From Catenulispora sp. EB89 (GTDB lineage: Bacteria > Actinomycetota > Actinomycetes > Streptomycetales > Catenulisporaceae): a stretch of DNA of 64,000 nucleotides. Below, piece after piece: positions 1 to 8,004 of this stretch. The stretch covers positions 372,001 through 436,000 of the forward strand of contig NZ_JBGCCU010000003.1 of assembly GCF_041261445.1 (NCBI RefSeq), written 5' to 3'. Position 1 is the first letter of the stretch, and every line of letters begins with the position of its first letter. Both the position numbers and the translations under genes were made by a program. The notes beneath the pieces are model-generated. The model did not search any database. It was not told the origin of the DNA and was given only the letters and a program-made list of their open reading frames with translations.

Positions 1-1451
1 CTGGTCAGCGTCACCTGCCCGGTGCGGCGGCTGCCGCGGCCCTGGACCGCCGGGACGTAGCGGATCGCCGGCGGCAGCGCGGCCAGCCCGACCGAGGAGG
101 GCGGGGCGGGCTCGGGGCTGGAGCCGGGGACCAGGGCCTCGACGGTGAACAGGCTCTCGCTCGCCCCGATCCGCAGCTGGAAGCCGCCTTCGTGCTCGTA
201 GACGCGGCGCGTGCACTCGGTCTCGCCGCGCCGGGCGTCGCCGCCGCGGCCGATCTGCCAGCGGACGACGGAGATGACGCAGTCCGGCGGCCAGATCCAG
301 GTGAGCAGGGCGTGCTCTTCGCGGCGCTCGGCGGTCAGTGCGGCGACCGGCTGCGGGTAGGAGGCGTCGGGGCCGGCGGAGGGCGCGGGGCGGGTCGGAG
401 GGACGTGGCCGGTGGGTGGTGCGGTGGGTGGTGCGGTGAATGGTCCGGAGGGGGTCTGCGGTGGCGGTGAAGGTGGGGTCGGCGGCGTATAGGGAGGCTG
501 AGTTCGGGGCCTGATCTGCTCTTCTGGGGTGGAGACCGGCTGCTGGCGGGCGGGTTCAGGGTCTTCGCGCTCAGGAGTGGTGACGAACGGCAACGGCCTT
601 GGTGCAGGATTCGACGAAGGCGTCCCGGAGGTGTTGACCCGCAGGAATCCGAAGTCCGCGGACCGCGCCGCACCGGCCGCGACCGCCGCCCCGGGCTCGT
701 CGCAGCGGACCGGGATCCCCAGCGCCTCGTGCAGCTGCGCGGCGAGGTCGGGTGTCGCATCGGCTCCGGCGAGCAGGACGGCGTCCAGGTCGTCCAGGAC
801 TGCCCCGCCGACCGTCGCCCCGGCCGTACGGACCGCGTCGATCCAGCCCTCGGTGCTGGTGTCGGCGATGTGCGGCACGCGCACGACGTCCACCAGGTAC
901 TCGCGCACCCGCAACGCGCAGATCTGCGGTCCGGCCGCGTCCACGATGCAGACCACGAGGTTCTGCGCCAGGCCTTCGCCGATCGCCTCGTAGTGCATGC
1001 AGACGGCGATCGGCGCGAGCACCGTGCCCCGGACCGCCAGGCCGGCCTCGTCGGCGGCCCGGCGCTGCGCGGCGATCGGCGCCACGCCGAGGTCGACCGG
1101 CGTGGCCAGGACCACGTCGCGCACCGTGCCGCCGGTCGCGGCCCGGGCCCGGTCGGCGAGCTCGGACAGCACCCGGGCCGCGACCCACTCCGGCGAATGC
1201 GTGCGCTCGAAGGCCTGCACGTCGGCGTCGAGGACGTCGGCGGACCGGGCCAGCAGGTCGTAGACCGAGGCGATGAAGGGTCCTGACGTACCCGGCGGCG
1301 CGGCCAGCGCGGGTTCGCCGACCAGGACCTCGTCCGGACCGGCGAAGCGGACCGCCGGCGGGATCGCCGCCGAGCCCGGCGCGCCGGCTCCGGCCGGGAG
1401 CCAGGCTATGCACGCCCGGCTGCGGCCGAGGTCGATGCCGAACACCGTCAT
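1..1451 (-). CDS. Hsp70-like ATPase with proline-rich linker, partial (3' end outside window)
   Basis: At least 483 residues are visible and the frame runs off the left edge without a stop. The N-terminus carries the actin/Hsp70 phosphate-1 motif (VFGIDLG, residues 3-9). An adenosine-motif-like stretch lies near residues 215-262, ending in EPGAAVAAGAA. A linker very rich in Pro and Thr follows (about 270-365), then a beta-rich domain of about 120 residues that may be a fibronectin-III-like or substrate domain. The nucleotide-binding half is shorter than in DnaK and the DnaK peptide-binding domain is not recognisable, so this is a divergent Hsp70 relative rather than the housekeeping chaperone. 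Its ATG shares four bases (ATGA) with the stop of the AAA+ gene, so the two are translationally coupled and probably cooperate. The function of the C-terminal part is unknown. Confidence 0.8.
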   Translation of the reverse strand, partial: MTVFGIDLGRSRACIAWLPAGAGAPGSAAIPPAVRFAGPDEVLVGEPALAAPPGTSGPFIASVYDLLARSADVLDADVQAFERTHSPEWVAARVLSELADRARAATGGTVRDVVLATPVDLGVAPIAAQRRAADEAGLAVRGTVLAPIAVCMHYEAIGEGLAQNLVVCIVDAAGPQICALRVREYLVDVVRVPHIADTSTEGWIDAVRTAGATVGGAVLDDLDAVLLAGADATPDLAAQLHEALGIPVRCDEPGAAVAAGAARSADFGFLRVNTSGTPSSNPAPRPLPFVTTPEREDPEPARQQPVSTPEEQIRPRTQPPYTPPTPPSPPPQTPSGPFTAPPTAPPTGHVPPTRPAPSAGPDASYPQPVAALTAERREEHALLTWIWPPDCVISVVRWQIGRGGDARRGETECTRRVYEHEGGFQLRIGASESLFTVEALVPGSSPEPAPPSSVGLAALPPAIRYVPAVQGRGSRRTGQVTLT

Positions 1452-7702: not shown

Positions 7703-8004
7703 GCGGCCACCAGGCGGGTGGTGTTGGCGGCGGCGTCAACCTCATGGCGGATCTGCACGGTGTCGCCTGGTACGAGCCGCGCTTCGGCAGAGTCCGGGGT
7801 GGCGCGGACGGCGAGGCCGTCGATCATCACGAACATCTCCGGGGACGGCACGGTGAGCACGACGCCCGGCATGCCGTCGACCGACGCCCAGACGTCCTGG
7901 GGCTCGGTCCCGCGCCGACCGCGTCGCAGACTCCTTCGAAAGGAACCCGGTGTCACGACTCGCACGCTACCGCCTCGTCGCCGGGTTCGGAATAGGATCT
8001 TCAT
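7699..8004 (-). CDS. Small basic protein leading the chaperone/kinase operon, unknown
   Basis: 101 residues from ATG 8004. A very basic N-terminus (FRTRRRGG..RRSLRRGRRG) precedes a predicted beta-rich half (PGVVLTVPSPEMFVMIDGLAVRA, then a hydrophilic end). It overlaps the VWA start by four bases (ATGA), so it is the first gene of the operon. No Shine-Dalgarno is obvious before the ATG and the start could be further downstream. I do not recognise a family. Its position suggests a regulator or small partner of the triad. Confidence 0.6.
   Translation of the reverse strand: MKILFRTRRRGGSVRVVTPGSFRRSLRRGRRGTEPQDVWASVDGMPGVVLTVPSPEMFVMIDGLAVRATPDSAEARLVPGDTVQIRHEVDAAANTTRLVAA

What the first reader, a model, noticed from the sequence alone, without database searches (positions are those of the whole stretch)
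1..8004. Kinase-phosphatase-VWA triad hard-wired to an AAA+/Hsp70 chaperone pair
Seven minus-strand genes with 4-bp overlaps or 2-95 bp gaps encode a small basic protein, TerY-like VWA, PP2C, kinase with WCPWC tail, coiled-coil protein, ClpB-like AAA+ and Hsp70-like ATPase. The VWA/PP2C/kinase set is the TerY-P triad of Aravind and colleagues, but no Ter genes are present. Linking it to a disaggregase-like pair suggests phospho-regulated protein remodelling, perhaps stress or defence related.
Basis: partly seen in the sequence, partly recalled or inferred. Interest (0 to 1): 0.87.

Follow-up and report, generated by a model that had tools for sequence, protein, structure and literature searches.

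The report
GTPase-switch immune-type operon with AAA+ unfoldase
The seven genes are the first part of a conserved ten-gene operon of filamentous soil bacteria: a predicted membrane GTPase "conflict" switch that here carries, as extras, a protein-unfolding machine beside a kinase/phosphatase pair; it is a distinct, seemingly undescribed subtype of a predicted but untested defence-like system.

Summary
In detail: seven co-directional, tightly packed genes are there. The window edge cuts the operon; three more genes follow: a zinc-ribbon DO-GTPase, GAP1 (N2/M/C domains) and a four-TM DO-GTPase. These are the core of the GAP1-N2 GTPase-centric conflict systems of Kaur et al. 2020, whose actinobacterial "third theme" includes kinase, PP2C and standalone vWA. 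It is not a Ter system (no TerD in the genome).

Two parts are absent from that paper's text: a ClpB-like AAA+ (degenerate first half, intact second half) and a coiled-coil protein. The "Hsp70" is the system's FNIII-type component with an N-terminal Hsp70 nucleotide-binding fold. It has no substrate-binding domain, and in the window its catalytic residues are lost: not a chaperone partner of a disaggregase.

All ten genes are collinear in 19 genomes (18 Streptomyces and the window's Catenulispora), and split over two contigs in C. rubra. GTPases of the AAA+ type form one clade (100/99). In Catenulispora the operon sits in a 36.5-kb island missing from five relatives.

Best reading: a phospho-gated, AAA+-remodelled subtype of a GAP1-N2 conflict switch. 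Identity is well supported; mechanism and defence role are inferred. New variant of a known kind.

The parts
7699..8004 (-). Small basic protein (101 aa), first gene of the operon; conserved position in all complete loci
   Evidence: only a sub-threshold RNase_II_C_S1 match
6992..7702 (-). Standalone vWA protein (236 aa); MIDAS DTSAS and TDG motifs invariant in 22 orthologues
   Evidence: PF00092 8.7e-8; motif table
6099..6995 (-). PP2C-type phosphatase (298 aa, GTG start); metal-binding Asp motifs invariant
   Evidence: PF13672 1.6e-25
5044..6096 (-). Ser/Thr kinase (350 aa) with WCPWC tail; catalytic Lys, GDLK Asp and DAD Asp invariant in 23/23, WCPWC 23/23
   Evidence: PF00069 4.4e-11
3587..4948 (-). 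Coiled-coil protein (453 aa): disordered N-terminus with near-invariant MSGSPKYS, long helices, small C-terminal beta4-alpha domain; no known family
4925..4948 (-). N-terminal octapeptide MSGSPKYS of the coiled-coil protein, strongly conserved although the whole protein is only about 35% identical between genera
1448..3583 (-). ClpB-like AAA+ protein (711 aa): degenerate AAA-like N-half without Walker A, intact ClpB-D2-type C-half (Walker A 2369-2395, pore loop GYVG 2243-2263, Walker B 2165-2191, sensor 2)
1..1451 (-). Hsp70-NBD-like / FNIII-like component (567 aa; runs past the window start to about -252): N-terminal Hsp70 nucleotide-binding fold with lost catalytic residues in this genome, Pro-rich linker, C-terminal beta-sandwich module shared with the FNIII component of other GAP1-N2 systems
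   Evidence: The operon continues outside the window as DO-GTPase2 with zinc ribbons (-1475 to about -249), GAP1-N2/M/C (-3894 to -1477) and DO-GTPase2 with four TM (-5520 to -3901)
8035..8035 (.). Right edge (approximate) of a 36.5-kb genomic island (contig C3:343,522-380,034) that holds the operon; five Catenulispora relatives have an empty site

Best explanation
The locus is a GAP1-N2-type, DO-GTPase-centred system, of the kind predicted to work as a thresholded conflict (anti-invader) switch, in a distinct subtype. Shown by sequence and conservation: a ten-gene operon (small protein, vWA, PP2C, kinase, coiled coil, AAA+, Hsp70-NBD/FNIII, Zn-ribbon GTPase, GAP1, TM GTPase) with intact motifs in the kinase, phosphatase, vWA, AAA+ and both GTPases. 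Inferred mechanism: the two GTPases, one membrane-anchored, and GAP1 form the switch at the membrane; the Hsp70-NBD/FNIII protein is its sensor or scaffold rather than a chaperone; kinase and PP2C set the threshold by opposing phosphorylation, with the vWA as peptide-binding partner; the ClpB-D2-type AAA+, with the coiled-coil protein as adaptor, threads and remodels a subunit of the complex to arm or reset the switch. The AAA+ has no evident ClpP-docking IGF/IGL loop (by eye), so remodelling rather than degradation is expected. The MSGSPKY[ST] tail of the coiled-coil protein is a candidate phosphorylation or docking site.
For: DO-GTPase2 (9.7e-10, 3.7e-16), GAP1-N2 (8.6e-33), GAP1-M and GAP1-C matches directly downstream in the same operon. 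Kaur et al. 2020 (PMC7159879, section 29) describe zinc-ribbon and four-TM GTPase pairs, a FNIII component, and kinase + PP2C + standalone vWA in actinobacterial GAP1-N2 systems. Ten-gene collinearity in 19 genomes. AAA+-type GTPases form one clade, 100/99, apart from the triad-only type. Pairwise identities of the genes correlate, r 0.81-0.96. Catalytic motifs invariant or nearly so. C-terminus of the Hsp70-like protein is homologous to the FNIII component of triad-only systems (hhalign 97.6%, 3e-12). Purifying selection on all nine operon genes tested, GAP1 the most relaxed at dN/dS 0.48. Island location.
Against: No component has been tested experimentally and no paper found in the held library describes this subtype. 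No effector is evident in the Catenulispora operon itself. Defence is predicted by Kaur et al. only from comparative genomics. Direct contacts among products, the role of the AAA+ and any phosphorylation target are inferences. PADLOC gave only weak, generic matches. The 95-bp kinase-coiled coil gap could hold an internal promoter.
Confidence: 0.62

Rival explanations
1. A housekeeping or developmental GTPase switch of filamentous actinomycetes (envelope, septation or cytoskeleton-like assembly) rather than a conflict system; the AAA+ recycles its complexes.
For: Membrane-anchored GTPase and no obvious effector in the operon; Kaur et al. themselves note a cytoskeleton-like assembly flavour; genes under ordinary purifying selection.
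Against: Sporadic presence: among 392 sampled genomes of the order, 7 Streptomyces and 2 Catenulispora with the AAA+ type were found, a lower bound, and 2 of 297 in the class sample; carried on an island absent from five congeners; neighbours in the island are caspase- and CHAT-type peptidases.
Confidence: 0.25
2. A stress-proteostasis module: a true ClpB/Hsp70-like disaggregase pair controlled by a kinase-phosphatase switch.
For: The AAA+ C-half is closest to ClpB D2 (PDB E 1e-70) with pore loop, Walker and sensor motifs kept; the N-terminal part of the partner has an Hsp70 NBD fold (Z 23.5 over 269 residues in the S. flaveolus orthologue).
Against: The Hsp70-like protein has FNIII-like modules where a substrate-binding domain would be, and in the window lacks the catalytic Lys and the DLGGGT motif; the first AAA half is degenerate; no DnaJ or GrpE in the operon; the operon core is DO-GTPase/GAP1.
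Confidence: 0.08
3. A TerY-P (Ter) metal or stress response system.
For: Standalone vWA, PP2C and kinase with Cys-rich tail in one operon, as I recall for TerY-P triads.
Against: No TerD homologue in the whole 11.9-Mb genome; the same kind of triad is found in DO-GTPase/GAP1 operons, with or without the AAA+.
Confidence: 0.03

Closest known systems
GAP1-N2-type DO-GTPase systems, kinase/PP2C/vWA theme (Kaur et al. 2020, eLife e52696)
   Same: Zn-ribbon DO-GTPase, four-TM DO-GTPase, GAP1 with N2/M/C domains, FNIII-type component, active kinase with Cys motif, PP2C and standalone vWA.
   Different: Adds a ClpB-like AAA+ and a coiled-coil gene; the FNIII component carries an N-terminal Hsp70 NBD; the triad precedes rather than follows the GTPases (compare L136).
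GAP1-N2 systems, HSP70/GrpE theme (same paper)
   Same: Hsp70-type domain, including versions without the peptide-binding domain, beside DO-GTPase/GAP1.
   Different: No GrpE or DnaJ; the Hsp70 NBD is fused to the FNIII module and is probably inactive in the window; occurs together with the kinase theme, although the paper calls the themes non-overlapping.
MoxR-vWA ternary systems (same paper)
   Same: AAA+ ATPase and a vWA protein in one proposed thresholding switch.
   Different: The AAA+ is ClpB-D2-like, not MoxR; no VMAP or other third component of that class was seen.
ClpB/Hsp104 disaggregases
   Same: C-terminal AAA+ with Walker A/B, pore-loop aromatic, arginine finger and sensor 2.
   Different: First AAA half degenerate; no Clp N-domain or middle domain recognised.

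Membership tests
GAP1-N2 DO-GTPase system | GAP1 with GAP1-N2, -M and -C domains | tested here: met
   8.6e-33, 1.7e-19, 1.4e-26, all above Pfam cut-offs
GAP1-N2 DO-GTPase system | DO-GTPases: one with zinc ribbons, one with four N-terminal TM segments | tested here: met
   Two DO-GTPase2 matches above cut-off; hydrophobic stretches 1-56 and 123-172 in the second; CxxC motifs and P-loops invariant
GAP1-N2 DO-GTPase system | FNIII-repeat component | tested here: inconclusive
   C-terminal beta-sandwiches predicted and homology to the equivalent protein of triad-only systems; no Pfam fn3 match
GAP1-N2 DO-GTPase system | Kinase/PP2C/standalone vWA theme | tested here: met
GAP1-N2 DO-GTPase system | Anti-invader function | not testable with these tools
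   Needs phage challenge; predicted only, in PMC7159879
Ter / TerY-P stress system | TerD-family genes in the genome or neighbourhood | tested here: not met
   0 TerD matches in G000
ClpB disaggregase | Two active AAA domains plus Clp N-domain | tested here: not met
   N-half lacks Walker A, only a weak AAA-lid match; no Clp_N match
ClpB disaggregase | D2-type AAA with pore loop, Walker and sensor motifs | tested here: met
Hsp70 chaperone | Hsp70 nucleotide-binding fold | tested here: met
   S. flaveolus orthologue Z 23.5, rmsd 3.1, 269 residues; window protein PF00012 1.4e-5
Hsp70 chaperone | Catalytic Lys and DLGGGT phosphate motif | tested here: not met
   Window protein: Lys position is Tyr (alignment); motif reads DAAGPQ
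Hsp70 chaperone | Substrate-binding domain | tested here: not met
   Pfam HSP70 match limited to the NBD part; disordered linker and a module homologous to the FNIII component follow

The most novel reading that the evidence does not exclude
The operon is a bacterial immune switch in which a kinase-phosphatase pair licenses a dedicated ClpB-type unfoldase, through the phosphorylatable MSGSPKY[ST] tail of its coiled-coil adaptor, to load or strip the GAP1/DO-GTPase complex at the membrane: a phospho-gated AAA+ arming step that I do not know from any described bacterial defence system.
Probability: 0.2. Interest if true: 0.75.

Novelty: new variant of a known kind. Interest (0 to 1): 0.52.

Why it matters
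GAP1-N2 systems are common in multicellular bacteria but, as far as the held library shows, known only from one comparative study. This subtype joins features described there as separate themes (kinase/PP2C/vWA and Hsp70) and adds an unfoldase, which makes the proposed NTP-driven thresholding directly testable: kinase, phosphatase, unfoldase and GTPase can each be knocked out within one ten-gene operon.

Tried and rejected
Ter system: rejected, no TerD in the genome. Fold search for the coiled-coil protein: no PDB match with E <= 0.001. Literature search for the triad or for DO-GTPase work beyond Kaur et al.: nothing specific; the TerY-P paper did not turn up in the library, and Kaur's figures and supplements could not be read, so an AAA+ drawn in their Figure 6B cannot be excluded. 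Apparent exceptions to synteny: L156 has 280 N in its record and looks like an assembly artefact upstream; in L157 the genes after the AAA+ are missing and this may be a real loss. A first coiled-coil search with the Catenulispora sequence missed the Streptomyces copies; a profile from both genera found them all. The NBD structure was predicted on the S. flaveolus orthologue because the window protein is cut by the window edge; the AAA+ was not modelled. One class-level genome search failed and was repeated with fewer genomes.

Full report
What is there. The window is contig C3:372,001-436,000 of an 11.9-Mb genome. Its congener G310 is Catenulispora rubra (same 10,657-base contig), so the organism is a Catenulispora. 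The finding was limited by the window edge: sequence to the left (L009) completes the Hsp70-like gene and adds three more genes with a 4-bp overlap and 1- and 6-bp gaps. Pfam names them DO-GTPase2, GAP1 (N2, M and C domains) and DO-GTPase2.

What it belongs to. Kaur et al. 2020 (PMC7159879) define GAP1-N2 GTPase-centric systems by this kind of GTPase pair plus GAP1 and a FNIII component, and describe an actinobacterial theme with kinase (often with zinc ribbon), PP2C and standalone vWA. The window locus meets these tests, apart from FNIII, which is inconclusive. The vWA/PP2C/kinase set also occurs in Streptomyces GAP1-N2 loci without AAA+, ordered FNIII-GTPase-GAP1-GTPase-vWA-PP2C-kinase (L136). 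Of the GAP1-N2 loci fetched from the order, eight including the window carry AAA+, triad, Hsp70 NBD and two GTPases together; eight carry the triad and two GTPases without AAA+ and without the Hsp70 NBD (seven with, one without a detected FNIII part); most others carry neither. These are not independent events: relatedness was not removed from the counts.

What is new. The AAA+ and coiled-coil genes do not appear in the text of Kaur et al. on these systems. A scan of 84,980 species genomes with the AAA+ alignment gave 21 loci, 20 Streptomyces and C. rubra. In nearly every locus that is not cut short by a contig end or gap, all ten genes are collinear on one strand: 19 distinct genomes, plus C. 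rubra across two contigs; L157 is the one possible real exception. GTPases of the AAA+ type form one clade with 100/99 support, and pairwise identities of the genes correlate at 0.81-0.96 among Streptomyces. Kinase, PP2C, vWA, AAA+ and GTPase motifs are invariant or nearly so. Between the two Catenulispora, dN/dS is 0.16-0.48 for nine operon genes, highest for GAP1.

The AAA+ protein. Its C-half is a ClpB/ClpC-type second AAA domain with Walker A, Walker B, pore loop, arginine finger and sensor 2. I see no IGF/IGL ClpP loop in the alignment (by eye). Its N-half has no Walker A and shows only a weak AAA-lid match to Cdc48/spastin, hence 'degenerate AAA-like', a reading not confirmed by a structure.

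The Hsp70-like protein. The S. flaveolus orthologue has an Hsp70 nucleotide-binding fold over residues 1-285 (Z 23.5, rmsd 3.1, 269 aligned), a disordered Pro-rich linker and C-terminal beta-sandwiches. No substrate-binding domain is recognised. The C-terminal module is homologous to that of the FNIII component in triad-only systems. In the window protein the catalytic Lys aligns with Tyr and the second phosphate motif is lost; Streptomyces copies vary. It is best read as a sensor or scaffold.

The coiled-coil protein. Only 32-39% identical between the genera, yet it starts with MSGSPKYS in nearly all copies; one has MSGSPRYS and one MSGSVMYS. The tail is predicted disordered (pLDDT under 50). 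A more distant C. rubra locus (L126), with AAA+, GAP1-M protein, vWA, PP2C and kinase, starts VSGSPKYT with different codons, so the peptide itself seems constrained; the invariant GGA codon in the close set may reflect an additional constraint on the nucleic acid. By contrast, coiled-coil-like proteins before a more distant AAA+ in CHAT loci without a recognised triad start MSSG.I.IAP. This makes the tail a candidate kinase target or docking site: an inference.

Setting. Five Catenulispora relatives join contig positions about 343,520 and 380,035 directly, with under 150 bases between, so the operon lies at the right end of a 36.5-kb island. The rest of the island encodes CHAT proteins, a caspase-like protein, LuxR-like ATPase regulators and a radical SAM protein (the regulators by eye from their sequences and the Pfam match of the L127 relative). 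C. rubra has the same neighbours. No integrase was seen by eye.

Limits. Function in defence, contacts among products and the order of events in the switch are all inferred. The neighbourhood counts are lower bounds, since about 25 of the GAP1-N2 hits were not fetched.

Noticed in passing
contig C3:343,541-348,514 (L182/L009); L128; L127: The island's left end has a CHAT protein and a second coiled-coil-like gene (MSSGGILIAP...). In C. rubra (L128) and G301 (L127) it is followed by a distant AAA+ (31-33% identical to the window's); that AAA+ is missing from the window genome as a roughly 2-kb indel.
   Followed up: partly
L140:18582-19778 and equivalents upstream of the operon in about 18 distinct Streptomyces genomes: A conserved gene with a Macro domain (PF01661) lies just upstream of the small-protein gene in most Streptomyces loci but was not found at the Catenulispora loci; a possible NAD/ADP-ribose-linked component.
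   Followed up: partly
L126:7617-16676 (G310:C224): A second C. rubra variant: coiled coil, AAA+ (39-40% identical), a 921-aa protein with GAP1-M only, vWA, PP2C and kinase, with no DO-GTPase or Hsp70-like gene recognised.
   Followed up: partly
window -14596 to -5573 (+ strand, outside the window): Caspase-like, two CHAT and a radical SAM gene converge on the operon; the arrangement is at least partly shared by C. rubra (L067) and could supply effectors.
   Followed up: partly
window 9507-10151 (-): Standalone Clp_N-domain protein (PF02861, 4.1e-28) about 1.5 kb from the operon, outside the island and probably part of the conserved flank; likely unrelated.
   Followed up: no
window 4937-4942 and equivalents: The Gly codon of MSGSPKYS is GGA in 22 of 22 GC-rich genomes and Ser-4 is mostly TCA, unusual codons that hint at a nucleic-acid-level constraint near the start codon.
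   Followed up: no
window 10400-10900: Stretch that looks repetitive and of low complexity in the ORF translations of several frames.
   Followed up: no
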